A stretch of 64,000 nucleotides of DNA, from NCBI RefSeq assembly GCF_048128805.1, contig NC_136012.1, positions 10,762,621-10,826,620 on the forward strand. Direction: 5' to 3'. Source of the DNA: Centroberyx gerrardi (taxonomy: Eukaryota > Chordata > Actinopteri > Beryciformes > Berycidae). Made by a program: the position numbers and the translations under genes. Positions 5,160 through 56,958 of the stretch are shown piece by piece; position 1 is the stretch's first letter, and each line of letters opens with the position of its first letter. The notes beneath the pieces are model-generated. The model had not been told where the DNA came from. It made no database searches and saw only the letters and a program-made list of their open reading frames with translations.

Positions 5160-5180
5160 TTCAGCACCACGGATAGCGAA
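5160..5180 (+). promoter_or_regulatory. RE1/NRSE (REST site) upstream of exon 18
   Basis: Left half ttcagcaccac is perfect and is followed by ggatagcgaa. It matches the 21-base RE1 consensus at about 18 positions. It lies 280 bp upstream of the exon 18 CSE. REST binding and neuronal silencing follow from the known role of this motif. Confidence 0.8.
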
Positions 5181-5420
5181 TTTTTTTATATGTACTACTA
5201 GTAGCCCTACCCTTCCCCTTCATCCAATAGAGTTCTGCCATAAAGGCGCCTATAGCTCTGAAGTTTCATAACCATGGACAATGATAAACTTGATCCCGAA
5301 AATGTCTATACGGAAGCCAGTACTTACGATGGAGGCCAACCCCTCAAACTCAAGAACATTGAATTCAATTTATATTAATTGTAACTCTTAGTCTCTCCAT
5401 AAATTATTTTATATTATGTT

Positions 5421-5704
5421 ACCCCAGTAACATTAGGCTATGGAAGCTGCCAGGGCATTGCATATTTATTTATTTATTATTGTTAGACCCTTATTAGACT
5501 TTCTTAGAGGGTAATTTGGGACACATTATAACAGAACCGTACCGTAAACTAAAGTGTATTATTTCCCACTGTTAGACACTTATTAAACTTTCTTAGAGGG
5601 TAATTTGGGACACATTACAACAGAAGTGTACTGTAAACTAAAGTGTATTATTTCCCACTGTTAGACCCTTATTAGACTTATTTAGAGCCTAATGTTACTG
5701 GGGT
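5421..5704. mobile_element. MITE-like element with 19-bp perfect terminal inverted repeats
   Basis: Positions 5421-5439 (accccagtaacattaggct) are exactly reverse-complemented at 5686-5704. The 284-bp interior has no coding capacity and is largely a tandem repeat. I see no convincing target-site duplication, so the superfamily is undetermined. It helps explain the long spacer between exons 17 and 18. Confidence 0.6.
5482..5690. repeat. 89-bp tandem repeat, about 2.3 copies
   Basis: Units begin at 5482, 5571 and 5660 with gttagac(c/a)cttatta and carry tttcttagagggtaatttgg. The third copy is cut at the right terminal repeat of the MITE-like element. The first two units differ at only a few bases, so the duplication is recent. 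Confidence 0.8.
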
Positions 5705-5989
5705 CGGATAGTGACATGGCATTAAATGGTCTTAACTGGTATGGGAGTAGAGCGTCGAGGAAGCATGTATTATGTATTACGCTATGTATTACTACCTACA
5801 AACTCCACGGGACTCCGGAGAACATCCAGGCTACGAGGGACGTGTCAAGTAGCGACCAGATGTGGTTTGACGTTATGGTACAGTTAGCTTCTAATGAGCA
5901 ACAAATGACCCTGTAAGAAAGTGAAACTATGTTAAATAAAGACCAAATAAATTGTCCTCTGAGCTCTCAGCGTTTTGTCTATTATAAAG

Positions 5990-6430
5990 GCTATGTCCGA
6001 TATAATATGGCATTACATTCGTCTAATTACAGCCTGTGTTGTCTAATTAAGCTATCATTGGTAGCATTAAATGTGATGTCTAATTACAGCATAATTTGGT
6101 AGTATAGCGTCTAACTAGCATATTTTGGATCTGATATGGCATTGTATTTGATTTCTAATTAGACTATGATCTTGTAAAATGGTGTCTAATAGTGTATTAA
6201 GATCTCCTATTTGGTTTCTAATTAGAGTATAATTTGGTATAATAGTGTCTAAGTATAGTATATTTTGGGTCTAATACGGTATTATATGCGGCTTCTAATT
6301 ACAGCATAATTTAGTTGTATGGTGTCTAATTAGGGTATAACTGTTTGTTTAGTGTCTAATAAAGAACATATTATTTCTAGTTTTTGTCTAATTTGATACA
6401 AAGTACGGCTTGTTACGTCTTATTAGTGTA
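5990..6430. repeat. Degenerate AT-rich minisatellite
   Basis: Many irregular repeats of tctaattagagtataatt and tggtgtctaat-like words occur. They share TTAGAC/CTAATTA vocabulary with the 89-bp units just left, so both may come from one element. No open frame or promoter signal is seen. Confidence 0.6.
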
Positions 6431-6550
6431 CCGTAAAATAAAGTGCGAGCGGAAATGTTGGTAACTTGTGGCGTGGACACACAGATATATTGTAAAAATG
6501 AATTACAGTCAATAGAATCAGTGTTATACTGTGTTATATATTGTTCTTAC

Positions 6551-8908
<2,358 letters not shown>

Positions 8909-9099: not shown

Positions 9100-9183
9100 A
9101 AGGGTGGGCCAGAATAAAGCCTGTGACGAAAGGCTCTGCGAGAGCCATACACTTACAACCAACCTACACTGACACCATGCGTT
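9100..9183 (-). promoter_or_regulatory. Variable exon 17 promoter: CSE/CTCF-like element plus G-rich box
   Basis: The sequence cactgacaccatgcgt (9168-9183) is 260 bp from the ATG. The box agggtgggcc starts at 9101. Confidence 0.7.
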
Positions 9184-9347: not shown

Positions 9348-9368
9348 TTCAGCACCACGGAGAGCAAC
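9348..9368 (+). promoter_or_regulatory. RE1/NRSE upstream of exon 17
   Basis: Intact left part ttcagcaccacgga, then gagcaac. About 18 of 21 match, 165 bp upstream of the CSE. Confidence 0.8.
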
Positions 9369-9791
9369 AATATACAGAGTCAAAATTCCTTAAAGAGAAA
9401 GCAATAGAAATATCACCCATCCATCCTGCCAATCAAGCAAGAAAAACTGCTGTGGAATATATCTTTATAACATTGGAAACCTTAATAATAAACATGGCTT
9501 GAAAAAAACTACGTACCTTGCGAAAAAAACAGAAAAAAACGACATATTTCCTAACGGAGAGGAGGATCAAAAAAAGTAATTGCAGATTTTGTCAGGAAGT
9601 TACAATAAGTGCACTGACAGTGGTTAATGCGAAGTAAGTCTTCACGTGTACTTTCCGTGTTCTTCCAAGAAGGAAGTGGTACCATGATATGTATTACTCA
9701 TATACAAACGGTCTCCCCAATAAATAGTTCTGCCAACAAGTCAGCTTGTAATGACGAGACATTATGCAATTCTTCAAGACATTACACTTAC

Positions 9792-12140
9792 CTCTCCAGA
9801 TGTCCGTCTCCTGTCGGGGACCACGAGAGTATTCCCATTGCTGCCCGGGACTATAGTAGAACCTATACTCATTCTGGGTCCAACTAACATGTATCGTCTG
9901 TCTCCAGATCTGTACTGGATGCTGTGGCACAGTGTCCCATCATAATTTGCATCTTGTAAGTACTTGGAGGAATAGTCGGTAGGTTTGGAGCACTGCATTA
10001 CAATCAACACGATGATACTGACTAGAAGAAGTGCTGAGACTGAGCCCAAAATTATCATCAGATAAAATGTAACATTATTCTCCTCTTCATCTTTTGCTGC
10101 ACTTTTAACATCGGAAGCTGCAAAAGCCTCTTTGGGCTCCACAGCCTTGACAATCACAGTAGCTGTTGCTGAGAGTAAAACGTTCCCATTGTCTTTTACC
10201 AGTATGACCAGTTTATGTTCAGCCTCGTCTGTCTCTGTGAATGACCGAAGTGTTCTTATCTGTCCTGTGTAGCGGTCCAAAGCAAAGAGACTGTGGTCAG
10301 TCACTTCCTGCAGTGAAAATAATAACCAGCCGTTATATCCTATATCAGCGTCATAGGCTCTCACTTTAGTCACCAAATGTCCTGCGTTCACATTGCGGGG
10401 AATCTCCTCCACACCTTCAGCAGAACCGTTAGCGCTGACTGGATACAAGATGACTGGAGCGTTGTCGTTCTGATCCAGAATGAACACGTTCACTGAGACG
10501 TTGCTGCTTAGTGATGGAGTTCCAGAGTCTGTGGCAACAACTTGGAAGTGGAATTTTTTCAATGTTTCAAAGTCAAAGCTTTTTAGTGCCAATATATCTC
10601 CATTTTCAGCATTGATGTTAAGAAATGAAGTCAGTTTATCTTCACTTCTATCTCTAAAAATATGATATGAAATAAGAGCATTTTCATCTTCGTCACGATC
10701 AAAGGCTTTCACTGAGAATACAGAGTCTCCTGGAGCGTTATTTTCATAAATGTAGAAGGTATATGGTTTCAGTAAAAACTCTGGAATGTTATCATTGACA
10801 TCTGATACAACAATGCTTATTGTCTTTTCAGATGACAGGGATGGTTCACCTGCGTCTTTAGCAACTATTGTTACATCATAATGGGATTGTTGTTCTCGAT
10901 CTAAAAGCAATTTGGTGATTAGAGAGTACATGTTATTTTGTAAAGATGGACTGAGCGTAAAAGGAACGTTTTGATTTATAAAACACATAACTTTTCCGTT
11001 GAGACCAGAATCTGAGTCTTTCACACTAATCAACGCCACTGTGGTTCCTGGTTTGGAATCTTCCGGTAGAGCACGAGAAAAAGATGTCACCTCGATTTCG
11101 GGTGCATTGTCGTTTACATCAACGATCCTAATAATAACACTTTTCTCAGATGTTAATTCCTTGTCGGATGCTTTTACGTCAATCTCATATCTGCTCATCT
11201 CTTCAAAATCTATTACTCCTGCAACGGTTATTACTCCAGTCAATGGGTTCAAATCAAAACGTGAACGTGCATTTGCCTCCACGTCATTACCAAATGAATA
11301 TATAACTTCAGCATTTGAACCCTCGTCCAAATCTGTTGCATTTACTTGTGTAACAGTTGTGCCAATAGCGGAATTTTCATTTAGTTGCACAGAGTAAGAA
11401 TCCTTGGTGAACACTGGAGGGTTATCATTGACATCGGAGACATCTACAGTTATTTTCATTTCACCAGACCTTGGAGGTTTACCTCCATCAAGGGCTGTGA
11501 GCAATAACGTATGGCTCCTCATAGATTCTCTATCAAGTGGCTTTTGGAGGATCAGTATAGGAGTTTTACGGTCCTCACCACGATCTTTCACCTCCAAACG
11601 AAAATGTTCATTCTGGCTCAATCTATATTGCTGAACGGAGAACGGACCACCATCAGCATCACGAGCAGCTTGAAGCTGAAATCTTGCTCCTGGTAATGCA
11701 GATTCAAAAATCTCTAATTGTTTCTCTTTCTCAGGAAAGCTGGGGGAATGGTCGTTTACATCCAACACCTCCACCGAGACATAATGGATCTCCAGCGGAT
11801 TCTCTAGCACGGTTTTCAAGTCGATCAAGCACACGCTGCTCCGTTCACAATCCTCCTCTCTGTCTATTTTTTTGTTCACATACAAGATGCCATCATCCTG
11901 ATTTACCCGGAAGAAAGGCTCAGTAGATCCGGCCACAATACGATATCCTCTTTCTTTCAATGTGCTCTTGTCCAGTCCTAAATCCTTGGCTATATTACCA
12001 ACAACTGTTCCTTCTTTCACTTCTTCAGAAATGGAATATCGTATTTGCGCCGTAGCCACGCGCCATAACAGAACCATAGCAATCGCGACGGCAATCCTAC
12101 CCGGTCGCTTCATCCATGTCCCGAGCTCTCTTTGTTCCAT
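9792..12140 (-). CDS. pcdha: Clustered protocadherin alpha-type variable exon 16
   Basis: 783 codons, MEQRELGTW to Ser-Gly-Glu, donor GTAAGT at 9791. Signal peptide about 1-31, ending ATA. It is the shortest of its subfamily because EC3 lacks four residues: [12 protein letters not shown] stands where relatives read ASDKG[10 protein letters not shown]. The loss keeps frame and is a natural surface-loop change. It resembles exon 18 through EC3-EC5 ([19 protein letters not shown]). It has GNVLLSATA for GNVSLSATA in EC6, removing an N-glycosylation sequon kept in the other complete exons. No RE1 is found in its upstream spacer. Confidence 0.95.
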
Positions 12141-12319: not shown

Positions 12320-12396
12320 AAAGGGGTGGACTGTCATGAATGACGAACAGTGACGAACAAGATTCACTATTATATGTTTATACTGACACCATGAGT
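12320..12396 (-). promoter_or_regulatory. Variable exon 16 promoter: CSE/CTCF-like element plus G-rich box
   Basis: The sequence actgacaccatgagt (12382-12396) lies 242 bp before the ATG. The box aaaggggtgga is at 12320. Confidence 0.68.
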
Positions 12397-13028
12397 CCGT
12401 TCAATGAAATATTGTTTGGCTATCAAGACAACTTAAATAATGTAACAAAAGCCGAACATTTGTAACATTTAACTTTTTTTTTTTTTTACAGGCCCGGTTG
12501 TAGACTGATTTGACTGGGGTGGGCAACTTTTTATTCATATCACAGTGTGCTGTACTAGAGTCTAGGCAGTTTAGTTATTGCCAGAAATATAAGACTTGAG
12601 TACTGCCTTTAAAAATACAAGAAAACTACAAGAAATACGTCCACAGATAAGAACAGGTTTCGGTCCAATACAGAGCCACATATCTGGCTCTAGAAGTTTC
12701 ATATAGTTCAAATGGCAGATAGCAACTATACAAACATATAATACATACAGAAACCACTATGAATATTTTTGAAATCAGTATGCCAAAGTCAGGTGAAGCA
12801 TTGTTCTATGAATACAATGTCATGAATACGCTGACAATAAACAGTAATAAAGAAGAAGCAGTTGAGCCTAATGGGACCAAACGTTTTCATTATGCGATTC
12901 CTATATTAGGCTACATAACGGTCAAGCACAAATGTAATGCATTGTTATTAAAATTGTTGAAATACACTCTGAGCACCACTCGAAAATAATGACAATATTA
13001 CATATATGTATCTGTGTACCATTCTTAC
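12397..13028. other. Spacer without RE1; poly-T run and unidentified AT-rich DNA
   Basis: A 14-base T run (12474-12487) is followed by about 470 bp with no homology to the other spacers that I can see. This could be a retroposed insertion in minus orientation that replaced the RE1, but no family was recognised. The last ~70 bp (12956-13027) resemble 16023-16118 before exon 14's donor. Confidence 0.4.
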
Positions 13029-15389
13029 CTCACCAGACGTACGTCTTCTGTCGGGGACCACGAGGGTATTCCCATTGCTGCCCGGGACTATAGTAGAACC
13101 TATACTCATTCTGGGTCCAACTAACATGTACCGTCTGTCTCCAGATCTGTACTGGATGCTGTGGCACAGTGTCCCGTCGTAATTTGCGTCTTGTAAATAT
13201 TTGGAGGAATAGTCTGTGGGTTTGGAGCACTGCATCAGAATCAACACGATGATACTGATTAGGAAAAGCGCTGAAACCGAGCTTAAAGTTATGATCAGAT
13301 AAAATGTCACATTGTTATCCTCGTCATCCTTTGCTGCACTTTTAACATCAGAAGCTGCAAAAGCCTCTTTGGGCTCCACAGCCTTGATAATCACAGTTGC
13401 TGTTGCTGAGAGTGAAACGTTCCCATTGTCTTTTACCAGTATGACCAGTTTATGCTCAGCCTCGTCTGTCTCTGTGAATGACCGAAGTGTTCTTATCTGT
13501 CCTGTATAGCGGTCCAAAGCAAAGAGACTGTGGTCAGTCACTTCCTGCAGCGAAAATAATAACCAGCCGTTATATCCTATATCAGCGTCATAGGCTCTCA
13601 CTTTAGTCACCAAATGGCCTGCGTTCACATTGCGGGGAATCTCCTCCACACCTTCAGCAGAACCGTTAGCGCTGACTGGATACAAGATGACTGGAGCGTT
13701 GTCGTTCTGATCCAGAATGAACACGTTCACTGTGACGTTGCTGCTTAGTGATGGAGTTCCAGAGTCTGTGGCAACAACTTGGAAGTGGAATGTTTTCATT
13801 GTTTCAAAGTCAAAACTTTTTAGAGCCAGTATGTCCCCATTTTCAGCATTGATGTTTAGGTATGAGGCTATTTTTCCATGTTCACTTCCATCTCTCAGAA
13901 TGTGATATGAAAGAAGGGCATTATTGCCCTCATCACCATCAAATGCTTTGACTGAAAATACTGAAGCTCCTGCAGCGTTATTTTCACTGACATAGAAAAT
14001 ATACGGGACCAGTGAAAACGCTGGACTGTTATCGTTCACATCTGATACAACCACGCTTATTGTTTTCTCAGATGTCAAGGCTGGTTCCCCTGTGTCTTTA
14101 GCTACTATTGTTACATCATATTGAGAATGCTTTTCTCTATCAAGTGGGTCCTTGGTAACTATAGAGTACATACTTTCTTGTAAAGATTGTATTATTTTGA
14201 AAGGTACATCTTCCACTATAGAACAAATAACTTTCCCATTCAAACCAGAATCTAGGTCAGTAACGCTGATTAGTGCCACTGTAGTTCCGATTCTGGAATC
14301 CTCAGGAAGTGCAGTGGAAAATGATGTCACCTCGATCTGAGGTACATTATCATTGAGATCAACGATTTGCACAACAACGCTTTTGTCGGTTGTCAGCGGA
14401 GCAGCTCCTTTATCAGATGCTTGAATATCAATCTCATAACTATCATCCGTCTCAAAATCAATTAATTCTTTGACAATTATATCTCCTGTCCTGGCATTAA
14501 CTTCAAATAATTTACGTAATCTATTATTAACATTAGTACCAAAAGAATAAATGACCTCACCGTTGGAACCTTCATCCAAATCTGTGGCATTTACTTGTAT
14601 AACAGTTGTACCAATTGGGGAGTTCTCATTTAACATAACAGAATAAGTATCTTTAGTGAAAACTGGTGAATTATCATTAACATCCAATACCTCGACTATT
14701 ATGTGTATCGTGCCTGACCGCGGGGGTTTCCCTCCATCAAATGCAGTCAGCAGTAGCCTGTGGCTACTCGTGGATTCTCTGTCTAGTGGCCTCTGTAGAT
14801 TAAGAATAGGTATTTTACCATCCTTTCCTCTGTCTTTAACCTCCAAACGGAAATGGTCATTTTGACTAAGTTTATACTGTTGAACAGAATATGTTTCACC
14901 GTCAAGGTCTTGCGCAGCTAGCAGCTGAAATCTAGCACCAGGTAACGCAGATTCCGATATTTCAAAACGTTTTACTTTCTCTGGAAAAGTAGGTGAATGG
15001 TCATTTATATCCAGCACCTCCACCGAGACATAATGGATCTCCAGGGGATTCTCTAGCACGGTTTTCAGATTGATCAGACAAACACTGCTCCGTTCACAAA
15101 TCTCCTCTCTGTCCACCTTATGATTCACGTACAAGTTGCCATCGTTCTGATTTACCTCGAACAGGGGCTCATTAGACCCAGACACAATACGAAGTGCTCT
15201 CTCCTCCAGGATACTCACATCCAACCCCAAGTCCTTAACTATATTCCCTACAACGCTTCCTTGTTTCACTTCTTCAGATATGGAGTATCTAATCTGTGCC
15301 GAAGCGCCACTCCACATGAAAGCCGAAGCAACCATAATAGCAATCCATCGCCATAGCCCCGTCCACGCCTCTCGTCCTCTTTGTTCCAT
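13029..15389 (-). CDS. pcdha: Clustered protocadherin alpha-type variable exon 15
   Basis: 787 codons, [11 protein letters not shown] to Ser-Gly-Glu with the variant end GGTGAG at the donor (GT at 13028-13027). Signal peptide about 1-31; EC1 CERSSVC. The EC1 start departs from relatives ([44 protein letters not shown]). EC4 reads [20 protein letters not shown] where others have [12 protein letters not shown]5 has [16 protein letters not shown]. In the membrane segment ITLSSVS replaces ITLGSVS and LILMQC replaces LIVMQC. Reading through the donor would add 26 codons before a stop, so an unspliced transcript would give a short alternative tail. Confidence 0.95.
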
Positions 15390-15562: not shown

Positions 15563-15620
15563 ATGGATGGGCGTTTATACATAAGACACACTTTTGCACT
15601 TGTGCACTGCCACCACGCGA
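15563..15620 (-). promoter_or_regulatory. Variable exon 15 promoter: CSE/CTCF-like element with TATA-like box
   Basis: The sequence cactgccaccacgcga (15605-15620) is 216 bp from the ATG. GTATAAAC (minus strand, about 15573-15580) and atggatgggcg at 15563 follow in the direction of transcription. Confidence 0.7.
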
Positions 15621-15870: not shown

Positions 15871-15891
15871 TTCAGCACCACGGACAATGAT
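15871..15891 (+). promoter_or_regulatory. RE1/NRSE upstream of exon 15
   Basis: Reads ttcagcaccacggaca then atgat: perfect for 16 bases, then decayed. About 17 of 21 match, 251 bp upstream of the CSE. Confidence 0.75.
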
Positions 15892-16119
15892 GAATGTGAA
15901 TTCTGGTTTCGATGGAACACTGGGCACAAAAAACAAACAAGAAAAAAAAACCTCATAGAATAGGCCTACATAACAAACCAGTCCAAATTTGAATCCTCCT
16001 GATTGCAATTTTTGAAATAGTCGTTAAAATACACTCTGGGCACCTATTGAAAGAATATTGCTTAAAAATGTCAAAAAGATATATCAGATATAGTAGATAT
16101 ATATGTATGTCCTTCTTAC

Positions 16120-18480
<2,361 letters not shown>

Positions 18481-18667: not shown

Positions 18668-18742
18668 AAGAGGGTGGACCCAAGCAAATAACGTGAGATT
18701 ATATCATGAGCGTTATTCTGTTTGCACACTGACGCCATGCGA
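18668..18742 (-). promoter_or_regulatory. Variable exon 14 promoter: CSE/CTCF-like element plus G-rich box
   Basis: The sequence cactgacgccatgcga (18727-18742) is 247 bp from the ATG. The box agagggtggaccc starts at about 18669, a clear example of the MEQRG-subfamily form. Confidence 0.7.
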
Positions 18743-18984: not shown

Positions 18985-19005
18985 TTCAGCACCTTGGAGA
19001 GAGGC
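18985..19005 (+). promoter_or_regulatory. Decayed RE1/NRSE upstream of exon 14
   Basis: Left half ttcagcacc is intact; the rest (ttggagagaggc) is diverged. About 16 of 21 match, 243 bp upstream of the CSE. Confidence 0.6.
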
Positions 19006-19247
19006 AACTGCATTCCAAACACTGGCGATAGATACATAACACGTTGCTTAATGAGAAAACGTTCAAAAAACACTAAACAAACTTTTCTAACCCAGTTGAC
19101 TGCACCAGCGGTGATTTTAAAACGTGTAGGTGATATGCTCTCTATGTCCCAAATAACATTTGTGGTAATGTGTCAATGTAAATGAAACAGATGTTGCTCT
19201 ACTGATCATGCAGCACCTACTATGATATGCCATTAAAACCATCTTAC

Positions 19248-21760: not shown

Positions 21761-21824
21761 AGAGGGGCAGGGCTTAACCTGAACACATACAACGTGTTCC
21801 TGGTGGAACATCGACACCATGTGG
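21761..21824 (-). promoter_or_regulatory. Variable exon 13 promoter: CSE/CTCF-like element plus GCCCTGCCCC box
   Basis: The sequence catcgacaccatgtgg (21809-21824) is 231 bp from the ATG. agaggggcagggcttaa at 21761 gives TTAAGCCCTGCCCC on the coding strand. Next to it, about 21738-21755, is gctgagatgaacaaaatct, also seen before exons 3, 7 and 8. Confidence 0.72.
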
Positions 21825-21964: not shown

Positions 21965-21998
21965 ACCATGCTCTGTAAACACAAGTGCACAACTGCAT

Positions 21999-22019
21999 TC
22001 CAGCACGACGGAGAGCAAC
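21999..22019 (+). promoter_or_regulatory. Decayed RE1/NRSE upstream of exon 13
   Basis: Reads tccagcacgacgga then gagcaac, about 16 of 21, 175 bp upstream of the CSE. The second half equals that of the exon 17 site. Confidence 0.6.
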
Positions 22020-26150: not shown

Positions 26151-28511
<2,361 letters not shown>

Positions 28512-32281: not shown

Positions 32282-34636
<2,355 letters not shown>

Positions 34637-37977: not shown

Positions 37978-38149
37978 CACCAGCAGGCGCACGGACAGTC
38001 TTCTTTACCAAAGAATAAATATTAAGTGGTCAAACTATTGCGTACATGATGAAGTGAAAACTGTTATCAAGTCAAAAACAACGAGGGAACATTGATTACC
38101 GGTAAGAATATGACAAAGCACTGTATGAAAAGTTTAAAATAAGTCTTAC

Positions 38150-40663: not shown

Positions 40664-40726
40664 GAGAGGGGCAGAGCTTATTCTAAAGGGTAAGGAATTC
40701 CCTACTGTAACACTGACATCATGTGG
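40664..40726 (-). promoter_or_regulatory. Variable exon 7 promoter: CSE/CTCF-like element plus GC box
   Basis: cactgacatcatgtgg (40711-40726), 231 bp from the ATG. gagaggggcagagcttatt at 40664 gives AATAAGCTCTGCCCC on the coding strand. gagctgaacaaaaagct is at 40645. Confidence 0.75.
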
Positions 40727-40842: not shown

Positions 40843-40863
40843 TTCAGCACCTCGGACAACGAA
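40843..40863 (+). promoter_or_regulatory. RE1/NRSE upstream of exon 7
   Basis: ttcagcacctcggaca then acgaa. About 17 of 21, 117 bp upstream of the CSE. Confidence 0.75.
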
Positions 40864-41056
40864 CATCAACGGGGCAAAGACACACTGCTTTACGTTTCAC
40901 GAAAAGCTTTACCATAGCTTTAAGTTTGACCATTCAAGCTACTCTTGTTATGGTGGAACGAAAATATCGCCACAGAGCCAACAGCACAGAAGGAAACTTG
41001 ATTGCTTGTCAACATGTACCATGCCACTGTAAATTAAAAGTTTAAACATTGCTTAC

Positions 41057-43402
41057 CTCTTCAGACGTACATCTCCTGTCGGGGACCACGAGGGTATTCC
41101 CATTGCTGCCCGGGACTATAGTAGAACCTATACTCATTCTGGGTCCAACTAACATGTACCGTCTGTCTCCAGATCGGTACTGGATGCTGTGGCACAGTGT
41201 ACCATCATAATTCATGTCTTGTAAATTCTTGGACGAATAGTCTGTTGGTTTGGAGCACTGCATTACAATCAACACGATGATACTGATCAGAAAAAGTGCT
41301 GAAACTGAGCCCAGAGTTATCATGAGATAAAATGTAACATTGTTTTCTTCTTCAGCTTTTGTTGCACTTTTAACATCAGAAGCTGCAAAAGCCTCTTTCG
41401 GCTCCACAGCCTTGATAATCACAGTTGCTGTTGCTGAGAGTGAAACGTTCCCATTGTCTTTTACCAGTATGACCAGTTTATGCTCAGCCTCGTCTGTCTC
41501 TGTGAATGACCGAAGTGTTCTTATCTGTCCTGTATAGCGGTCCAAAGCAAAGAGACTGTGGTCAGTCACTTCCTGCAGTGAAAATAATAACCAGCCGTTA
41601 TATCCTATATCAGCGTCATAGGCTCTCACTTTAGTCACCAAATGTCCTGCGTTCACATTGCGGGGAATCTCCTCCACACCTTCAGCAGAACCGTTAGCGC
41701 TGACTGGATACAAGATGACTGGAGCGTTGTCGTTCTGATCCAGAATGAACACGTTCACTGTGACGTTGCTGCTTAGTGATGGAGTTCCAGAGTCTGTGGC
41801 AACAACGTGGAACTGGAATGTTTTCATTGTTTCAAAGTCAAAACTTTTTAGCGCGGAAATTTCCCCGTTTTCATAATTGATATTAAGGAAGTTGGCCATT
41901 TTATTTTGTGCCCCATCAACTCTTGCAATATGATACAATATTGCTGCATTGTCGTTCAAATCAATATCAGAAGCGCTGACACAGAATATAGACGCACCAG
42001 GTGGATTATTTTCCGCTAAGTAAAGGTTAAGGGGATTTTGTGAGAATTTGGGGATGTTATCATTCACATCCGATACCTGAATGTTTAGAGTTTTTTCAGA
42101 GGACAAGGGAGGTGTACCACAGTCAGTAGCTGTTATTATGATGTCGTAATGAGACAACATTTCTCGATCTAAACTCTGCTTTGTCACTAAGGAGTACATG
42201 TTATCCTGAAATGATGGTTTCAGTTCGAATGGAACATTTTGTGAGAGACTACATATCACTTTCCCATTCATACCGGAGTCTTTATCGGTAACACTGATGA
42301 GAGAGATCACTGTTCCTGGTTTTGAATTCTCGGCAACTACGCTAGAAAGGGATGTAAGCTCTATCTCTGGCTGATTATCGTTGATATCTATTATTTTAAT
42401 GATTACTCTGCAATCTTCAGTCAAAGGAGGCTGCCCTTTATCAGACACTTGCACATCTAGTCTGTATACATCTGTCTCCTCAAAATCAACTTCACCTTTA
42501 ACCCGAATTTCACCACTGAGTGTGTCTAAATCAAATACTTTACGTTTGACATTTTTATCCCAAGAATACTCCAGATCACTATTAGAACCTTCATCCAAGT
42601 CAGTCGCGTTCACTCGAATAATAACTGTGCCAAGAGGGGCATTTTCTTGCAGGCTTACTGAATACGTATCCTGACTACATACCGGACGGTTGTCATTTGA
42701 GTCGAGAACATTGATAGTAATATTTAAGGTGCCTGATCTTTGTGGATTACCTCCATCACTTGCAGTAAGAACTAAACTGTGTTTAGACTTGAATTCTCTA
42801 TCTAGCGGTTTTCTCAAAACTAAAAAAGGTATTTTATATTCATCCTCTCTCATCTCGATTTCAAAATGGTCATTCTGACTTAATTTATATAAACGGACAG
42901 AATTTCTCCCTAAATCTGGATCCTGCGCAGCCTGTATCTGGAAACGCTTCCCAAGCATTGTCTGTTCAGCTATTTCAAAATGCTGCATGTTTTCTGGAAA
43001 GAGGGGAGCGTGGTCATTTATATCAGTTATTTCTACACTAACATAGTGAATCTCTAGGGGATTTTCAACGACAATTTTAAGATTGATCAAACAAGCGCCC
43101 TTTCCATCACAGAGCAATTCTCTGTCGATATTCTTGTGGACTAGCAATGCTCCATTGTTCTGGTTTACCGTAAATAGATCGTCCCTTGAACCAGAAACAA
43201 TACGAAACCGTCTCTCGGTCAAAGTACTGATGTCAAGTCCGAGATCTTTTGCAGCGTTCCCCACAACGGATCCCACATTTACTTCCTCTGGAACAGAGTA
43301 TCTAATCTGAGCTGAAGCCTGGTGCTCCAAGCACAGCATCAGAGAGAAAAGCAGTACAACACACCAGTACTCCAATTTTCGCCTTTGTCTTCTGTCACCC
43401 AT
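41057..43402 (-). CDS. pcdha: Clustered protocadherin alpha-type variable exon 6
   Basis: 782 codons, [13 protein letters not shown] to Ser-Glu-Glu, the only exon here with Glu for Gly at the junction; donor GTAAGC (GT at 41056-41055). Signal peptide about 1-31; EC1 CDGKGAC. EC3 is shortened at [19 protein letters not shown], where relatives have three more residues (KVYDTFxLDSxTGEI). EC2 ends [12 protein letters not shown] with a Cys. EC5 reads [39 protein letters not shown]. Pre-membrane [11 protein letters not shown] is shared with exons 9 and 4, a conversion footprint. Tail [11 protein letters not shown] and RRCTSEE are unusual, adding one Cys. Confidence 0.95.
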
Positions 43403-43589: not shown

Positions 43590-43649
43590 GAGGGGCAGGG
43601 CATAATCATAGAGCATGACTATAACCCATGTCACACTGACACCAAGTGG
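43590..43649 (-). promoter_or_regulatory. Variable exon 6 promoter: CSE/CTCF-like element plus GCCCTGCCCC box
   Basis: cactgacaccaagtgg (43634-43649), 232 bp from the ATG. gaggggcagggcataat at 43590 gives ATTATGCCCTGCCCC. Confidence 0.75.
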
Positions 43650-43818: not shown

Positions 43819-43845
43819 TTCAGCACCACAAAGGTAGACAGCGAC
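43819..43845 (+). promoter_or_regulatory. Expanded-spacing RE1/NRSE upstream of exon 6
   Basis: Perfect left half ttcagcacc (43819-43827), eight bases, then agacagcgac (43836-43845). The half-sites stand 6 bp further apart than in the canonical motif, matching the known class of RE1 with widened spacing that REST still binds. It lies 170 bp upstream of the CSE. Confidence 0.75.
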
Positions 43846-44042
43846 AGCAACACATTCTCTCCTCGACTACAAGACTGAGGTACAAGTGACTGTGAACATG
43901 ACAATGAAACAAACTGTGACATCATATCATTCTAATTAAGCCTAATTAAACATACTACTGATAATTAGGAACAGATCCAATGTTGCCAGTTGAACGCCTA
44001 TGCAGATGCATACCCTGCTTTAAAAATTCAAATAATTCTTAC

Positions 44043-46409
<2,367 letters not shown>

Positions 46410-46576: not shown

Positions 46577-46642
46577 AGATGGGCTGGGCCTATAAAGAAT
46601 CAAAACCAAAAGCATAATCTATGTCACACTGACACCATGTGG
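46577..46642 (-). promoter_or_regulatory. Variable exon 5 promoter: CSE/CTCF-like element, TATA and GC box
   Basis: cactgacaccatgtgg (46627-46642), 218 bp from the upper ATG or 260 bp from the lower. agatgggctgggcctataaa at 46577 gives TTTATAGGCCCAGCCC: a TATA box fused to the GC box. No RE1 was found in the 400 bp upstream. Confidence 0.78.
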
Positions 46643-47050
46643 ACTGTTGGTTCCAAACTCTTATGATGGCAACACATGGTTTGACATGTCATGCAGTAAG
46701 TTATAAAGGTTACATTCGCGTTTGAGGTAATGAAATCAATCCAAACGTCAATCAGACAAAAATAAATTGTTCATGAACAATGGTTATGACGAATTACATA
46801 TCTCAGTATAGCTTTCCTATACACCCAAAATCAGTAGAGAGCATAGGAAATATTAAACATATGAATAATGCATTTTATGAACTATAAAATATGTAGACCA
46901 CTGTCATAGAGGACAGGGAAAATTTCATAACTTTGACGGAACCACTGACGCACTTCTTCAGCAACAGCTTGAAATTATATTTCATTTTTACGGACACATA
47001 TCTTCTGCTTATGCTAAGATGTTGCTTTGAAAACAATAAATATTGCTTAC

Positions 47051-49414
47051 CTCTCCAGACGTACGTCTCCTATCGGGGACCACGAGAGTATTCCCATTGC
47101 TGCCCGGGACTATAGTAGAACCTATACTCATTCTGGGTCCAACTAACATGTATCGTCTGTCTCCAGATCTGTACTGGATGCTGTGGCACAGTGTCCCATC
47201 ATAATTTGCATCTTGTAAGTACTTGGAGGAATAGTCTGTCGGTTTGGAGCACTGCATTACAATCAACACGATGATACTGATGAGAAAAAGTGCTGAAACT
47301 GAGCCCAGAGTTAACATGAGATAAAATGTAACATTGTTTTCTTCTTCAGCTTTTGTTGCACTTTTAACATCAGAAGCTGCAAAAGCCTCTTTGGGCTCCA
47401 CAGCTTTGATAATCACAGTAGCTGTTGCTGAGAGTGAAACGTTCCCATTGTCTTTTACCAGTATGACCAGTTTATGCTCAGCCTCGTCCGTCTCTGTGAA
47501 TGACCGAAGTGTTCTTATCCGTCCTGTATAGCGGTCCAAACCAAAGAGACTGTGGTCAGTCACTTCCTGCAGTGAAAATAATAACCAGCCGTTATATCCT
47601 ATATCAGCGTCATAGGCTCTCACTTTAGTCACCAAATGTCCTGCGTTCACATTGCGGGGAATCTCCTCCACACCTTCAGCAGAACCGTTAGCGCTGAGTG
47701 GATACAAGATGACTGGAGCGTTGTCGTTCTGATCCAGAATGAACACGTTCACTGTGACTTTGCTGCTTAGTGATGGAGTTCCAGAGTCTGTGGCAACAAC
47801 GTGGAACTGGAATGTTTTCAGTGTTTCAAAGTCAAAACTTTTTACCGCGGAAACTTGCCCATTGTCAGAATTGATATTAAGGAAGGATGTCATGTCATTA
47901 TTTGCTCCATCCCCTCTTACAATATGATAGGAGATTGCTGCATTTTCATTTAAATCTTTATCAGAAGCACTCATAGAAAATATAGGATCGCTGGGGGCGT
48001 TATTTTCAATCAAATAAAGCATAAAGGGGTTCTGGGTAAATTCTGGGCTGTTATCATTCACATCTGACACCTGAATGCTGAGAGTTTTAAACGTGGACAG
48101 AGGAGGCTGACCACAGTCAGTGGCTGTTATTGTGATGTCATAGCGTGATATAAGTTCTCGGTCCAATCGTTGATTATTAATTAAAGAGTATATATTGACT
48201 TGAACTGAAGGTTTTAATTCAAAGGGCACATCATCAGTGAGATTGCATATTACTTTGCCGTTTAAGCCAGAGTCTTTATCAGTCACGCTAATGAGAGAAA
48301 TCACAGTTCCAGGACTTGAGTCTTCAGAAACCATGTTAGAGAGCGATGTCACCTCTATTTCAGGTTCATTATCATTCACATCTTTCACCTTGATTATAAC
48401 CCTACATTCAGAAGTCATGGGAGGCTGTCCTTTATCAGATGCCACAATATCGGCTCTAAAAGTTTCAGAATCCTCGAAATCAATTTCGCCCTTTACTGAA
48501 ATTTCACCAGTTTTAGAATCTAAAGTAAAAGTATCATACACCTTTCTTTTCAAGTTTTTAACGAAAGCATACGTTACCTCGGAGTACAGCCCATCATCCA
48601 AATCAGTAGCATTAACTTTAACCACAAAAAAACCCTTTGCCACATTCTCCTGTATAGTTACTAAATAAACGTCTTGGCTGAATACTGGCCTGTTGTCATT
48701 GTTATCAAGAACAGTTACTGTAATGTTAGCATGCCCTGATTTTGCAGGGTTCCCGCCATCGATGGCTGTCAAAACCAAATAATGTTTACTCTCCCGTTCT
48801 CTGTCAAGGGATTTGCGCAGTTTTAGAATCGGAATTTTTCCTTCATCGCCACTGTCTCTCATCTCGATTTGAAAATGTTCGTTTGGGCTTAACTTGTATA
48901 AATTCACTGAATTTGTCCCAGAGTCGGGGTCACGGGCAGCTTGTAGTTGGAAACCTGTTCCAGGAAGTGTAGACTCAGCTATTTCTATAAATTGGTCTTT
49001 CTCAGAGAAAGTGGGAGAATGGTCGTTGACATCAGTGATTTCCACACCAACATAGTGAATTTCGAGAGGATTTTCTAAAACAATTTTGAGATCCATCATG
49101 CATACCCCGTCACTATCACAGATTTCCTCTCTGTCGATATTCTTAAGAATGATCAAGGCTCCATTGTTCTGATTTACCTGGAAAATATCATCCTTAGATC
49201 CAGACACTATACGAAATCTTCTCTCCATCAAAGCACCGATGTCAATACCCAGGTCCTTCGCAATATTTCCAACAACGAATCCGACTTTTACTTCCTCTGA
49301 AATAGAGTATCTTAACTGAGCCGAAATCTGCTCCGAGAAGCACAACAGTAGAGAGAGACGCAGTGCAAACCACCAGTACTCCATTCTGGGTCTTTGTCCT
49401 CCGTCACCCATCAT
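47051..49414 (-). CDS. pcdha: Clustered protocadherin alpha-type variable exon 4
   Basis: 788 codons from the first of two adjacent Mets ([18 protein letters not shown] 49414 or 49411) to Ser-Gly-Glu, donor GT at 47050-47049. The frame is open 20 codons further upstream. Signal peptide about 1-32. Mature start [14 protein letters not shown] mixes the two subfamily styles. EC1 [20 protein letters not shown]3 is distinctive ([47 protein letters not shown]). An Arg-Gly-Asp lies in EC5 (IVRGDGANN). EC6 has SSKVTVNV for SSNVTVNV (sequon lost), [13 protein letters not shown], and the TKAEEENN pre-membrane stretch shared with exons 6 and 9. Confidence 0.95.
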
Positions 49415-49604
49415 TGATCCAAAGACACGCAGACTCTCCTTATAGCAAGTATAGTAATCCCTGCAGTCAAACAACCAGGTAAACCATCACTAAATCATTT
49501 CGAAAACGATTATTAGAGGCCAATTCGTGGGAAATACGGAAAATCTACCATAATCATACGTTCTTTTTGTGATGTCTACACTCGACCAATGGGGAGAATA
49601 CCGA

Positions 49605-49669
49605 GAGGGGCAGGGCTTATAAAGCGTCAAGACTACAACCATAATTTATTTCACACTGACACCATGTGG
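49605..49669 (-). promoter_or_regulatory. Variable exon 4 promoter: CSE/CTCF-like element, TATA and GC box
   Basis: cactgacaccatgtgg (49654-49669), 240 bp from the ATG. gaggggcagggcttataaag (49605-49624) gives TTTATAAGCCCTGCCCC, the clearest TATA/GC-box combination in the array. Confidence 0.82.
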
Positions 49670-49984: not shown

Positions 49985-50005
49985 TTCAGCACTATAGTCA
50001 GCGAC
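49985..50005 (+). promoter_or_regulatory. Decayed RE1/NRSE upstream of exon 4 (proximal copy)
   Basis: ttcagcactatag then tcagcgac. About 16 of 21; both outer halves survive and the centre is changed. It lies 316 bp upstream of the CSE. Confidence 0.6.
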
Positions 50006-50182: not shown

Positions 50183-50353
50183 TATTATCAACTGTAAATC
50201 GGTCTACTAGCCCAATTTTGTGACATCGATTTATTTCTCCTTTCAAAATAATATAACTGCATATTAAACAATCAGATTCAACACAATGAAATCATCAAAA
50301 TAATACAACAATAAAAAAAACGCCAAATTTGTTTTAATCCAAACATTACTTAC

Positions 50354-52708
<2,355 letters not shown>

Positions 52709-52877
52709 CGTTACAGTACTATTCAAATATATATCCAGACACAGGTCGTTACAAAATATCACCAAAGCCAAACGTACGTTGTAAAAGTACATCCCATGTT
52801 TTCAAGTTATCAAATGCTAAAACGCTACACCGTCTAAAAAAGGGTCTCTCTCTTTCGAGCTGAACAAAATCTCTCCG

Positions 52878-52942
52878 AAAGGGGCTGGGCCTATACTATA
52901 ACACAAAATTCTGTATCATGATATGACACTGACACCCCGTGG
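52878..52942 (-). promoter_or_regulatory. Variable exon 3 promoter: CSE/CTCF-like element, TATA and GC box
   Basis: cactgacaccccgtgg (52927-52942), 219 bp from the ATG. aaaggggctgggcctatact at 52878 gives a TATAG/GCCCAGCCCC pair. gagctgaacaaaatctctcc is at 52857. Confidence 0.77.
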
Positions 52943-53046: not shown

Positions 53047-53067
53047 TTCAGCACCATGGACAGCACT
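53047..53067 (+). promoter_or_regulatory. RE1/NRSE upstream of exon 3
   Basis: ttcagcaccat then ggacagcact. About 18 of 21, with both halves recognisable, 105 bp upstream of the CSE. Confidence 0.82.
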
Positions 53068-53304
53068 AGGAAGTGGACCCAGCGTTTTATGCTAGTAGCT
53101 TTCCTGGATGAAACAGCCTACACAGAATTTCAACACAGCCAAAATCATTAACTTAAGGAGGTACCATGATGTAGCCGTACAATGTAAAAATTGTTGAATT
53201 TGTATGATAACACTTCCTTTTATATAATATATGCCATCTCAACGTAACTTAAAGTAAATTCCTCTTAAGTGTATGGTTAGGATTAGAACAGAACATGGGC
53301 TTAC

Positions 53305-55656
53305 CTCTCCAGATGCCTGCCTCCTGTCGGGGACCACGAGAGTATTCCCATTGCTGCCCGGAACTATAGTAGAACCTATACTCATTCTGGGTCCAACTAA
53401 CATGTATCGTCTGTCTCCAGATCTGTACTGGATGCTGTGGCACAGTGTCCCGTCATAATTCGTGTCTTGTAAATACTTGGACGAAAAGTCTGTGGATTTG
53501 GAGCACTGCATTACAATCAACACAATGATACTGATGAGGAAAAGTGCTGAAACTGAGCCCAGAGTTATCATTAGATAAAATGTAACATTATTTTCTTCTT
53601 CATCTTTTGCTGCACTTTTAACATCTGAAGCTGCAAAAGCCTCTTTGGACTCCACAGCCTTGACAATCACAGTAGCTGTTGCTGAGAGTGAAACGTTTCC
53701 ATTGTCTTTTACCAGTATGACCAGTTTATGCTCAGCCTCGTCCGTCTCTGTGAATGACCGAAGTGTTCTTATCTGTCCTGTATAGCGGTCCAAAGCAAAG
53801 AGACTGTGGTCAGTCACTTCCTGCAGTGAAAATAATAACCAGCCGTTATATCCTATATCAGCGTCATAGGCTCTCACTTTAGTCACCAAATGTCCTGCGT
53901 TCACATTGCGGGGAATCTCCTCCACACCTTCAGCAGAACCGTTAGCGCTGACTGGATACAAGATGACTGGAGCGTTGTCGTTCTGATCCAGAATGAAGAC
54001 ATTCACTGTGACGTTGCTGCTTAGTGATGGAGTTCCAGAGTCTGAGGCAACAACGTGGAAGTGGAATGTTTTCAGAGTTTCAAAGTCAAAACTTTTTAGC
54101 GCGGAAATTTGTCCACTATCGGAATTGATATTCAGGAAAGATGCCATATCACCCTGTCGCCCATCACCTCTTACAATACGATATGTGATTGCTGCATTTT
54201 CATTCAAATCATTATCAGAAGCACTTACAGAGAATATCGATGCACCAGGGGCATTGTTTTCCACTAAATACAGTTCAAAGGGGTTCTGGCTAAAATTTGG
54301 TCTGTTATCATTCACATCTGATACCTGAACGTTCAATGTTTTTACAGTGGACAGAGGAGGCTGACCACAGTCAGTAGCTGTTATTGTGATGTCATAATGT
54401 GACACGATTTCTCGGTCTAAACGTCCCTTCGTGACAAGAGAGTACATGTTCTCCTGAATAGATGGCGTCAAATCAAATGGAACATTATCTGAGATTGTAC
54501 AAATAACTTTACCGTTGACACCAGAATCTCTGTCTGTCACACTTATAAGAGAGATAACGCTGCCTGGTTTTGAATCTTCCGGTACTACGTTGGACAATGA
54601 TGTGACTTCTATATCGGGCTTATTATCGTTCACATCTTTAATTTTTATGACAACTCTACTTTCGGCCGTCCAGGGTGGCTGGCCTTTATCAGAGGCCTGC
54701 AAATCCAGTCTGTAAACCTCAGTGTCCTCAAAGTCTACGTTTCCTTTAACTCGAATCACACCAGTGATGCTATCTAATGCAAAAGTATCATACACTTTTT
54801 TCTTTTGTGTTTTGCCAAAGGTGTATTCAATGGCGCTGTTAGAACCTTCATCTAAATCTGTAGCGTTTAATTTGATCACGAGAGTTCCAATATTTGCATT
54901 TTCATACAATGAGACAGTATACGTATCTTGACTGAACACAGGGCGATTGTCATTGGTATCTAATACTGTGATAGTTAAATTAAGGCTCCCAGATTTCGAC
55001 GGATTGCCCCCATCAAGAGCCGTTAACACTAAAAAATGCTCTGCCTTGTGTTCCCTATCCAAAGGCTTTTTCAGCACTAAAAACGGTATCTTGTCCTCTT
55101 CGCTGTCTCTCACTTCAATATCAAAAATGTCAGTTGAGCTCAGCCTGTAGAAACGAACTGACTGTAACCCGACATCGGGGTCTCTAGCCGCATGTATTTG
55201 GAAACGAGTACCTGGAGGAATATGTTCTGCTATTTCCAAGCGCTGCTCACTTTCTGGAAAAGTCGGTGAGTGATCGTTAACATCCGTTATTTCAACACCA
55301 ACGTAATGTATTTCCAGAGGGTTTTCAACAACGATTTTAAGGTTTATCAAACATGGACTGGCTCCATCACAAAGCGCTTCGCGGTCGATCTTCTTTTGAA
55401 CATACAATAATCCATTGTTCTGATTTAACTGAAACAGAGCATGATTCGAGCCAGAAACAATACGAAACCGCCTGTCTGTCAAAATACTGATGTCAAGTCC
55501 TAAATCCTTTGCGACATTTCCAACAACGGACCCCACTTTCATCTCTTCTGGAACAGAGTACCTTAGCTGGGCCAAAATCTGCTCCCCAAAGCACAGCAAC
55601 AAAAATCGGGCAATCCACCAGTAGTTCATTCTTCGCCTTTGTCCTCTGTCTCCCAT
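53305..55656 (-). CDS. pcdha: Clustered protocadherin alpha-type variable exon 2
   Basis: 784 codons from [14 protein letters not shown] (ATG 55656; the frame is open 19 codons further upstream) to Ser-Gly-Glu, donor GTAAGC (GT at 53304-53303). Signal peptide about 1-29, ending ILA. Mature start [16 protein letters not shown]1 CDGASPC. EC3-EC4 nearly match exon 5 ([45 protein letters not shown]), while EC1-EC2 differ, so these exons form a mosaic. An Arg-Gly-Asp lies in EC5 ([10 protein letters not shown]). VESKEAFAA (others VEPKEAFAA) and CSKSTDFSS in the tail are unique. Confidence 0.95.
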
Positions 55657-55844
55657 TGTGTAGCAAAAACTGAAGCCTTTATTTGAAGCAAATACAGTGA
55701 TCGGGGTACTCATGTAACCAGACTGATCAGATCCATTTCAGAAATGGCAAATAGAAGCCCTCGCACAGTAAATACTAACCGCTAATCATATTACTTGCGA
55801 TAAATGCCGTCTACTCCATCAGCCATAGTAACAGAAATGATCCA

Positions 55845-55911
55845 GAGATGGGCAGGGCCAATACGGAATCAGTACCACAGCCATAACCTATGTCACACTG
55901 ACACCATGTGG
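55845..55911 (-). promoter_or_regulatory. Variable exon 2 promoter: CSE/CTCF-like element plus GC box
   Basis: cactgacaccatgtgg (55896-55911), 240 bp from the ATG. agatgggcagggccaatacg at 55845 gives GTATTGGCCCTGCCC. Confidence 0.75.
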
Positions 55912-56937
55912 CTGTGGGTTACAAAACTTTATGAGGGCTAAACAGGTTTTCATTACAAAAGTACAAAAATCACCACTCCCTTACTCCACTACCTCCTTTC
56001 CTGGGACCAGTGAACCAATGTTTATGCCACCAGCTGCCCGCTGTCCACTAATGGACACAAGAGGAGCTGCTTATAACGGCTCCCAATGTCTCACTCAATG
56101 GAGGATGCTCAACTCTGCCCTCTCCAGCAAGTACAATACATGTTTGATATGTTTCCGGCAAAGCCCAATAAACCCATGCGTGATTAATGGACTATATAAG
56201 AAGGAAACGGCATTTTGAATGATACACACAAATCATATGAAATGTAAAGTCTCGAAATTACTCGAAAGTTGATGGCAATGTATATCCAATGATTTGTGGT
56301 ATAAAAAGTTGGGAAGACTATGACCTTCAGTCTGATATTATTTTGATAGGGCTTAAATGATGTATTCTGTGAGTTTGCATCATTAAAATTGTCAGCCTCA
56401 AAAGGTGGATAAACTCCATAGCGCAAATAAAAATGTGGGTACACTGAGTTTTGTTGGGTTTGCCCTCTACATCACTTATATCTAAATATGCCAACATGTT
56501 GAATAGAAGGCCCTTCCAGAGGAAACGAGGTTGTCATCAACAGACATCTCATCTATTACACTGAAGCATTGATGCCATCCCGAATTTCCCTTTCTTTTTT
56601 TTGCTCTCCTCCTATCTTCCTCTCTCTCTCTTCCTAGTTACTTCCTGTTGTGGTGTGAGGGAGGAGAGGACAGGAGAAACCTTGCGAAACTTTGAGGCAC
56701 AACTATGAATTCAATTTGAATGTGAGCTAATGCAAGAACGGTGAGTGGAAATGCGCAGGATACTGAACCAGATGTGAATCCAAACTCAAATGGGAATGCC
56801 ACCAATTTCAAGAATTAATGTTATTCCTGCGCCCCAGAACAACTCAGTCAATACTTGTGAACATGCACCACTCTTCTCCTAAAGCTAGAAACTGGAAAAC
56901 TATTCCGTGAATTTGTGAAGTCACTGGGATGTAAAAC
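55912..56937. other. Expanded spacer between CSE and RE1 of exon 2
   Basis: About 1 kb where other spacers have 105-320 bp. It includes a pyrimidine-rich run (56585-56640) and single-copy-looking DNA. No retroposon hallmark or coding frame was recognised. Probably an old insertion or an unexpanded ancestral spacer. Confidence 0.5.
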
Positions 56938-56958
56938 ATCAGCACCATGGTCAGCGTC
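56938..56958 (+). promoter_or_regulatory. RE1/NRSE far upstream of exon 2
   Basis: atcagcaccatgg then tcagcgtc. About 17 of 21. It is 1.03 kb from the CSE but only about 80 bp past the exon 1 donor. Confidence 0.72.

What the first reader, a model, noticed from the sequence alone, without database searches (positions are those of the whole stretch)
5160..56958. Serial RE1/NRSE silencers, about one per variable exon, in one orientation
Fifteen RE1-like sites lie between exons (5160, 9348, 15871, 18985, 21999, 25986, 28949, 34979, 37957, 40843, 43819, 49985, 50162, 53047, 56938). All read on the plus strand and usually sit 105-320 bp upstream of the next CSE. RE1 sites in protocadherin clusters have been reported, so the presence is known biology. 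The near one-per-promoter periodicity, with a gradient from 20/21 to decayed copies, is a quantitative natural series of REST affinity. It predicts exon-by-exon differences in non-neuronal leakage.
Basis: partly seen in the sequence, partly recalled or inferred. Interest (0 to 1): 0.8.

Follow-up and report, generated by a model that had tools for sequence, protein, structure and literature searches.

The report
Promoter REST silencers in fish protocadherins
In this fish cluster of nerve-cell adhesion genes most gene copies carry, just upstream of the promoter, the same short landing site for REST, the protein that keeps neuronal genes off outside the nervous system; the sites are real and look selected for, but the principle was already known from pufferfish and mammals.

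Summary
The window holds 19 protocadherin variable exons, probably alpha type, on the minus strand. The RE1/NRSE sites are real. Of 15 claimed, 12 score 20.6-33.4 bits with an approximate, recalled REST matrix (shuffles: 0.005 sites above 18 bits). All 12 lie on the plus strand, antisense to the genes, in promoter spacers. A 13th, 43819, reads as a non-canonical NRSE with an 8-bp spacer, one of the two spacer lengths that silenced in a published reporter screen. 49985 is probably decayed, 25986 borderline. So 13 of 19 exons carry a good site.

RE1 and the CSE are islands of paralogue identity (0.77 and 0.79) in spacers otherwise at 0.23-0.35. Coding synonymous sites are near saturation, and RE1 occurs in both main exon subfamilies. 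One ancestral site kept by selection explains this; recent duplication or gene conversion does not. The 'affinity gradient' is weaker: no positional trend, variants in classes, and published RE1 silencing is threshold-like.

Promoter NRSEs in fugu Pcdh clusters and exonic ones in mammals are in print. This is another member of a known kind; the spacer-switched site is the fresh detail. REST binding was not tested.

The parts
5160..5180 (+). RE1, promoter of exon 1
   Evidence: 24.4 bits; gap to CSE 280
5265..5285 (+). second weak RE1-like word, exon 1 spacer
   Evidence: 8.1 bits, near chance level
9348..9368 (+). RE1, promoter of exon 2
   Evidence: 30.0 bits; gap 165
15871..15891 (+). RE1, promoter of exon 4
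   Evidence: 20.6 bits; gap 250
18985..19005 (+). RE1, promoter of exon 5
   Evidence: 27.8 bits; gap 242
21999..22019 (+). RE1, promoter of exon 6
   Evidence: 22.5 bits, 3 mismatches to the 14-base core; gap 174
25986..26006 (+). borderline, possibly decayed RE1, promoter of exon 7
   Evidence: 8.0 bits; gap 224
28949..28969 (+). RE1, promoter of exon 8, best site
   Evidence: 33.4 bits; gap 188
34979..34999 (+). RE1, promoter of exon 10
   Evidence: 21.8 bits; gap 137
37957..37977 (+). RE1, promoter of exon 11
   Evidence: 28.1 bits; gap 111
40843..40863 (+). RE1, promoter of exon 12
   Evidence: 22.5 bits; gap 116
43819..43845 (+). non-canonical NRSE with 8-bp spacer, promoter of exon 13
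   Evidence: 24.6 bits with spacer 8, 2.3 as canonical; gap 169
49985..50005 (+). probably decayed RE1, exon 15 spacer
   Evidence: 12.8 bits
50162..50182 (+). RE1, exon 15 spacer, far from CSE
   Evidence: 22.9 bits; gap 492
53047..53067 (+). RE1, promoter of exon 16
   Evidence: 30.6 bits; gap 104
56938..56958 (+). RE1, exon 17 spacer, far from CSE and close to the 3' end of exon 18
   Evidence: 24.8 bits; gap 1026
1640..1656 (-). CSE core, exon 0
   Evidence: 23.2 bits; not used to build the CSE matrix
4863..4879 (-). CSE core, exon 1
9166..9182 (-). CSE core, exon 2
12380..12396 (-). CSE core, exon 3
15604..15620 (-). CSE core, exon 4
18726..18742 (-). CSE core, exon 5
21808..21824 (-). 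CSE core, exon 6
25745..25761 (-). CSE core, exon 7
28744..28760 (-). CSE core, exon 8
31735..31751 (-). CSE core, exon 9
34825..34841 (-). CSE core, exon 10
37829..37845 (-). CSE core, exon 11
40710..40726 (-). CSE core, exon 12
43633..43649 (-). CSE core, exon 13
46626..46642 (-). CSE core, exon 14
49653..49669 (-). CSE core, exon 15
52926..52942 (-). CSE core, exon 16
55895..55911 (-). CSE core, exon 17
1..1464 (-). variable exon 0 (cut by window end), no RE1
   Evidence: open ORF; best canonical score -1.4
2147..4633 (-). variable exon 1 (ORF)
6524..8908 (-). variable exon 2 (ORF)
   Evidence: protein compared
9774..12140 (-). variable exon 3 (ORF), no RE1
12948..15389 (-). variable exon 4 (ORF)
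16084..18480 (-). variable exon 5 (ORF)
19233..21578 (-). variable exon 6 (ORF)
23135..25540 (-). variable exon 7 (ORF)
26040..28511 (-). variable exon 8 (ORF)
29114..31519 (-). variable exon 9 (ORF), no RE1
32267..34636 (-). variable exon 10 (ORF)
35203..37641 (-). variable exon 11 (ORF)
38096..40480 (-). variable exon 12 (ORF)
41042..43402 (-). variable exon 13 (ORF)
44028..46409 (-). variable exon 14 (ORF), no RE1
47009..49474 (-). variable exon 15 (ORF)
50264..52792 (-). variable exon 16 (ORF)
53239..55713 (-). variable exon 17 (ORF)
57025..59400 (-). variable exon 18 (ORF), no RE1, weak CSE

Best explanation
The sites are genuine REST (NRSF) binding elements: one ancestral RE1 per promoter unit, inherited through tandem duplication of a protocadherin variable exon together with its promoter and kept by purifying selection in most copies. 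In cells that contain REST (non-neuronal cells and progenitors) REST would bind about 100-300 bp upstream of the CSE, recruit its co-repressors and keep each promoter off, perhaps also hindering CTCF/cohesin contact between promoter and distant enhancer. In neurons, where REST falls, the promoters become available for stochastic choice. Shown here: the motifs, their positions and their conservation among paralogues. Inferred from published work on Pcdh clusters and REST: binding, repression and the CTCF step. At exon 13 a canonical site appears to have been changed into a spacer-8 site that should still bind REST, more weakly. Exons 0, 3, 9, 14 and 18 lack a site and exon 7 is doubtful; these may leak, or rely on neighbours or on an enhancer site outside the window.
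For: 12 canonical sites above 18 bits against 0.005 expected. Without any motif given, CSE and RE1 words are the most widely shared 9-mers of the 19 spacers (GGTGTCAGT in 11, GGTGCTGAA in 10; maximum in 200 shuffles 6); with both masked no 9-mer is shared by more than 5 spacers. Pairwise identity over the 12 RE1s is 0.77 against 0.25-0.32 in neighbouring 21-bp blocks, and between subfamilies A and B 0.78 against 0.25-0.33. Median synonymous difference of the 5' coding part is 0.69-0.85 in eight 60-column blocks and drops only from column 480 on (exons 0 and 18 left out), so RE1 lies outside the conversion tract. RE1 occurs in both main subfamilies with scattered absences. Eleven sites with at most one core mismatch compare with 1102 in the whole zebrafish genome by the same rule (PMC3531662). 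Published: deleting NRSEs from Pcdh constructs shifts expression from neural to ubiquitous in Xenopus tadpoles (Tan 2010 as told in PMC3601302); NRSE constructs, a single element included, gave brain-only expression in at least 10% of injected zebrafish embryos against 0 of 114 without (PMC3531662); REST at HS5-1 reduces enhancer-promoter contacts through preventing CTCF binding (PMC8096226); genes most up-regulated on REST inhibition often have sites within 1 kb of the start (PMC2573930).
Against: No binding or expression data for this species. The matrix was approximate and recalled, not a database matrix. Five of 19 exons have no site and one only a borderline one, so the site is not indispensable. 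Two strong sites lie far from their CSE (492 and 1026 bp). Some sites change core positions (G17 to A in exons 4, 10 and 12) and may fall under the silencing threshold. Most genes with a REST site were not derepressed by dominant-negative REST in mouse stem cells (PMC2573930). Presence of RE1 is no more clustered on the tree than shuffled labels (6 changes, shuffled mean 5.8), so the single origin rests on the shared orientation and position. A Xenopus NRSE screen paper shows pcdh10 and pcdh8 in the passages seen, no clustered Pcdh (PMC4430910).
Confidence: 0.86

Rival explanations
1. Neutral leftovers: the RE1 copies merely came along when exon-promoter units were duplicated and have no present role.
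For: Tandem duplication explains the single orientation; 5 of 19 exons lack a site.
Against: Flanks of the sites are at 0.25-0.32 pairwise identity while the 21 bp stay at 0.77; synonymous sites are near saturation; neutral copies of that age would not be recognisable.
Confidence: 0.05
2. REST sites whose main role is chromatin architecture or silencing of non-chosen promoters inside the nervous system rather than keeping the cluster off outside neurons.
For: REST at HS5-1 acts by preventing CTCF binding, and the authors suggest that NRSEs may repress non-chosen members in single brain cells (PMC8096226, passages); sites lie close to the CSE.
Against: REST is said to be minimal in progenitors and undetectable in mature neurons (same paper); promoter NRSE constructs restrict expression to the nervous system. 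The RE1-CSE gap is not helically phased (p about 0.13, n 10).
Confidence: 0.2
3. A binding site of another zinc-finger factor that happens to resemble RE1.
For: No REST binding was measured.
Against: Invariant positions across the 12 sites fall in both RE1 half sites (C3, A4, G5, C6, A7, C8, G12, G13, A16), and the aberrant copy at 43819 has one of the two spacings that silenced in the REST reporter study.
Confidence: 0.03
4. For 43819 only: a decayed canonical RE1 with a chance right half, not a working spacer-8 NRSE.
For: Right half carries A for the first G; canonical score 2.3 bits.
Against: A right half this good at gap 7, 8 or 9 has a chance of about 0.002 given the left half, and no shuffle set of 300 reached the total score.
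Confidence: 0.3

Closest known systems
Promoter NRSEs of the fugu protocadherin clusters (Tan et al. 2010, seen only as reported in review PMC3601302)
   Same: Teleost clustered Pcdh genes with canonical and non-canonical NRSEs in promoters; removing NRSEs from Pcdh constructs abolishes neural restriction in Xenopus tadpoles.
   Different: The species of the present window is unknown. Here the paralogue footprint, the subfamily distribution and the spacer-8 site at 43819 are worked out; whether Tan et al. did the like could not be read.
[quoted passage not shown]
   Same: Serial, about one (gamma-a: two) per variable exon, same factor, same gene family.
   Different: Human sites lie inside variable exons; here all 12 strong canonical sites lie in promoter spacers and no exon hit exceeds 10.1 bits.
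HS5-1 enhancer NRSE of PCDH alpha (PMC8096226, passages)
   Same: Non-canonical site with an 8-bp gap, as at 43819.
   Different: HS5-1 is a distal enhancer; 43819 is a promoter site whose paralogues are canonical.

Membership tests
Canonical RE1/NRSE | Left half TTCAGCACC and right half GGACAGCGCC separated by 2 bp | tested here: met
   12 of 15 claimed sites at 20.6-33.4 bits with an approximate matrix; 11 with at most one mismatch to the published 14-base core
Canonical RE1/NRSE | Occupied by REST in cells that express it | not testable with these tools
   no ChIP data for this genome
Canonical RE1/NRSE | Represses a linked promoter outside neurons | not testable with these tools
   published for fish reporters and Pcdh constructs, not for these sites
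Non-canonical NRSE (8- or 9-bp spacer) | Both half sites, same orientation, spacer of 8 or 9 bp | tested here: met
   43819: spacer 8, 24.6 bits, above all 300 shuffle sets; class described in PMC9903721
Clustered protocadherin variable exons | Tandem large single exons coding the ectodomain and membrane segment, each with a splice donor and a CSE about 200 bp upstream | tested here: met
   19 ORFs, one of them cut; GAG/GTAA donor shown for 17 of 18 complete exons, the row for exon 10 fell beyond its stop; CSE at 16.4-29.0 bits for 18 of 19, exon 18 weak at 6.7; 17 of these were used to build the CSE matrix
Clustered protocadherin variable exons | Alpha rather than gamma type | tested here: inconclusive
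   one exon compared: Pcdh10 463 bits, Pcdha7 452, a gamma B2 chimera 408, alpha-4 397; the constant exons are outside the window

The most novel reading that the evidence does not exclude
The cluster is a natural series in which an ancestral promoter RE1 has repeatedly changed state while keeping its function: canonical forms with distinct right halves, a paired site with one copy decaying (exon 15), and at exon 13 a switch from the canonical 2-bp to the non-canonical 8-bp spacer by what looks like a 6-bp insertion plus one substitution. The switch would use the jump in spacing that REST tolerates and would show how non-canonical NRSEs can arise from canonical ones.
Probability: 0.45. Interest if true: 0.5.

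Novelty: new member of a known kind. Interest (0 to 1): 0.38.

Why it matters
It confirms that in this fish the silencers sit in promoters, where mammals have them inside coding exons, and that RE1 and the CSE are the two elements most widely kept in otherwise diverged spacers. It offers sister promoters with and without RE1 (exons 1 and 3; 17 and 14) and one with a changed spacer, a ready set for testing how REST strength and half-site spacing shape neuron-restricted expression.

Tried and rejected
Rejected: that the sites are chance. That they ride on the gene-conversion tract. That mammal-like exonic NRSEs also exist here: the commonest exon hit, CACAGCATCCAGTACAGATCT on the coding strand (14 rows above 5 bits), scores only 5.6 bits and lies in the homogenised 3' end. 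That 43819 is merely decayed. That exons without a strong RE1 have hidden sites with 7- to 9-bp gaps: none above 11 bits in the spacers of exons 0, 3, 7, 9, 14 and 18. Upstream of exon 18 there is a gap-5 pair on the minus strand (62039, 16.5 bits), but gaps of 3-6 bp are said to be excluded (PMC8096226). That the spacing to the CSE is helically phased (p about 0.13). That site score follows position.

Led nowhere: the spacers of exons 1 and 3 align no better than shuffled sequence (52.9 against a shuffled maximum of 64.3), so how exon 3 lost its site cannot be read. No internal repeat explains the long exon 17 spacer. The species could not be named with the tools at hand. Tan et al. 2010 is not held (one search had used a wrong DOI). 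In one search a column headed CGCT was printed but never computed and is not used.


Full report
What is there. The window carries 19 large ORFs on the minus strand (exon 0 is cut by the window end), each a protocadherin variable exon. A GAG/GTAA splice donor was printed for 17 of the 18 complete ones; the row for exon 10 fell beyond its stop and is not judged. Exon 2, the only one compared, is nearest in the PDB to Pcdh10 (463 bits) and, among clustered chains, to mouse Pcdha7 (452), then a gamma B2 chimera (408) and alpha-4 (397): probably alpha type. A conserved promoter word, CCACATGGTGTCAGTGT on the gene strand, lies roughly 150-280 bp upstream of the ORF start: the CSE. It scores 16.4-29.0 bits for exons 0-17 (all but exon 0 helped to build the matrix) and 6.7 for exon 18. 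The word holds no CGCT, as PMC4978886 reports for zebrafish alpha Pcdhs (passages). The 3' parts of the exons are homogenised (median synonymous difference 0.02-0.32 in the five blocks from column 480 to 780) and the 5' parts near saturation (0.69-0.85 in eight blocks) (exons 0 and 18 left out), the teleost pattern of regional gene conversion (PMC1852091, passages).

The sites. All 15 words are present as stated. With an approximate recalled REST matrix 12 of the 15 reach 20.6-33.4 of 36.5 bits; 200 shuffles of the 19,045 spacer bases give on average 0.005 hits above 18 bits. By the published core rule (TCAGCACCnnGGACAG, one mismatch allowed; PMC3531662, section read) the window holds 11 sites, while the paper counts 1102 in the zebrafish genome; with a genome of about 1.4 Gb (recalled) that is roughly 200-fold enrichment. 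All 12 strong canonical sites are on the plus strand, antisense to the genes. The perfect left half TCAGCACC occurs 12 times on the plus strand and never on the minus strand, each time in a spacer. Ten of the 12 sites lie 104-280 bp upstream of the CSE, two lie 492 and 1026 bp away.

An independent check. Counting shared 9-mers over the 19 spacers (700 bp each at most) with no motif given, CSE words (11 of 19) and RE1 words (10 of 19) come out on top; 200 shuffled sets never exceed 6. With both masked, the best remaining 9-mers are shared by 5 spacers, three AT-rich and one, GAGGGGCAG, about 50 bp downstream of the CSE.

Conservation. Pairwise identity among the 12 sites is 0.77 over the 21 bp and 0.25-0.32 in neighbouring 21-bp blocks. 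The CSE (exons 0-17) gives 0.79 against 0.25-0.35. Between the two main exon subfamilies (branch support 100/99 for A, 92/98 for B) RE1 identity is still 0.78 against 0.25-0.33 in the flanks. Because the sites were chosen for matching RE1 the absolute number is biased upward, but such sites are practically absent from shuffles, so the contrast is real. RE1 lies outside the conversion tract. I infer that one ancestral RE1 existed before the subfamilies split and was kept by selection, with scattered losses (exons 0, 3, 9, 14, 18; exon 7 doubtful). The tree needs 6 changes for presence of a canonical RE1, no more clustered than shuffled labels (mean 5.8), and is drawn on a midpoint root, so the single origin rests on shared orientation and position rather than on the tree.

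The site at 43819. As a canonical RE1 it scores 2.3 bits. Allowing other spacers, TTCAGCACC-ACAAAGGT-AGACAGCGAC scores 24.6 of 34.9 with an 8-bp spacer; the best of 300 shuffle sets for spacers 7-9 is 19.6, and a right half this good at gap 7, 8 or 9 of a given left half has a chance of about 0.002. Against the best canonical site (28949, TTCAGCACCAC-GGACAGCGAC) it differs by six inserted bases and one substitution. A genome-wide reporter study found that, among non-canonical arrangements, 8- and 9-bp spacers silenced while other distances did not, more weakly than the canonical 2-bp form (PMC9903721, passages), and the HS5-1 enhancer NRSE has an 8-bp gap (PMC8096226, passages). This copy is better read as spacer-switched than as decayed; REST binding to it is inferred.

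Against the graded reading. Site score shows no trend with position (rho 0.14, p 0.57) or with CSE score (rho 0.32, p 0.18); the RE1-CSE gap does shrink along the cluster (rho -0.85, p 0.0016, n 10), which is confounded with subfamily. Right halves fall into a few forms: GGACAG (exons 8, 11, 16), GGAGAG (2, 5, 6, 15), GGACAA (4, 10, 12), GGATAG (1), GGTCAG (17). PMC9903721 reports a strength threshold, so a step is more likely than a scale, though that work is on human sequences in episomal plasmids.

What is known. The review PMC3601302 (passages) states that NRSEs of clustered Pcdh genes lie in promoters in fugu and in coding sequence in mammals, and cites Tan et al. 2010, which is not held. 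PMC8096226 (section 20 and passages) maps exonic NRSEs in human alpha and gamma exons and reports that REST at HS5-1 reduces enhancer-promoter contacts. Searches of the open library listed no paper on spacer switching between paralogous Pcdh NRSEs; that is no proof of absence.

Verdict. Real and under selection, most likely REST silencers of the single promoters; ordinary in kind. Interest is moderate, chiefly for the spacer-switched site and for the sister promoters with and without a site.

Noticed in passing
window 43819-43845: Non-canonical NRSE with an 8-bp spacer among canonical paralogues; looks like a 6-bp insertion plus one substitution.
   Followed up: yes
window 15871, 34979, 40843: The same change, G to A at RE1 position 17 (GGACAA), recurs in exons 4, 10 and 12, which belong to two subfamilies.
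   Followed up: partly
window 5265 and 49985: Exons 1 and 15 have a second, weaker RE1-like word 105 and 177 bp from the strong one.
   Followed up: partly
exon 3' parts, alignment columns from about 480 on: Strong regional homogenisation of the 3' coding parts, with near-saturated 5' parts.
   Followed up: partly
window 5481-5687 and 6079-6338: Tandem repeats of 89 bp (2.3 copies) and 140 bp (1.9 copies) in the long spacer upstream of exon 1.
   Followed up: no
window 57025-64000: Exon 18, the most 5' exon in the window, is a long branch in the tree with a weak CSE (6.7 bits) and no canonical RE1 above 8 bits in the 4.6 kb upstream.
   Followed up: partly
spacers upstream of exons 6, 11, 12, 13, 15: A GAGGGGCAG word (CTGCCCCTC on the gene strand) about 50 bp downstream of the CSE is shared by 5 promoters.
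   Followed up: no
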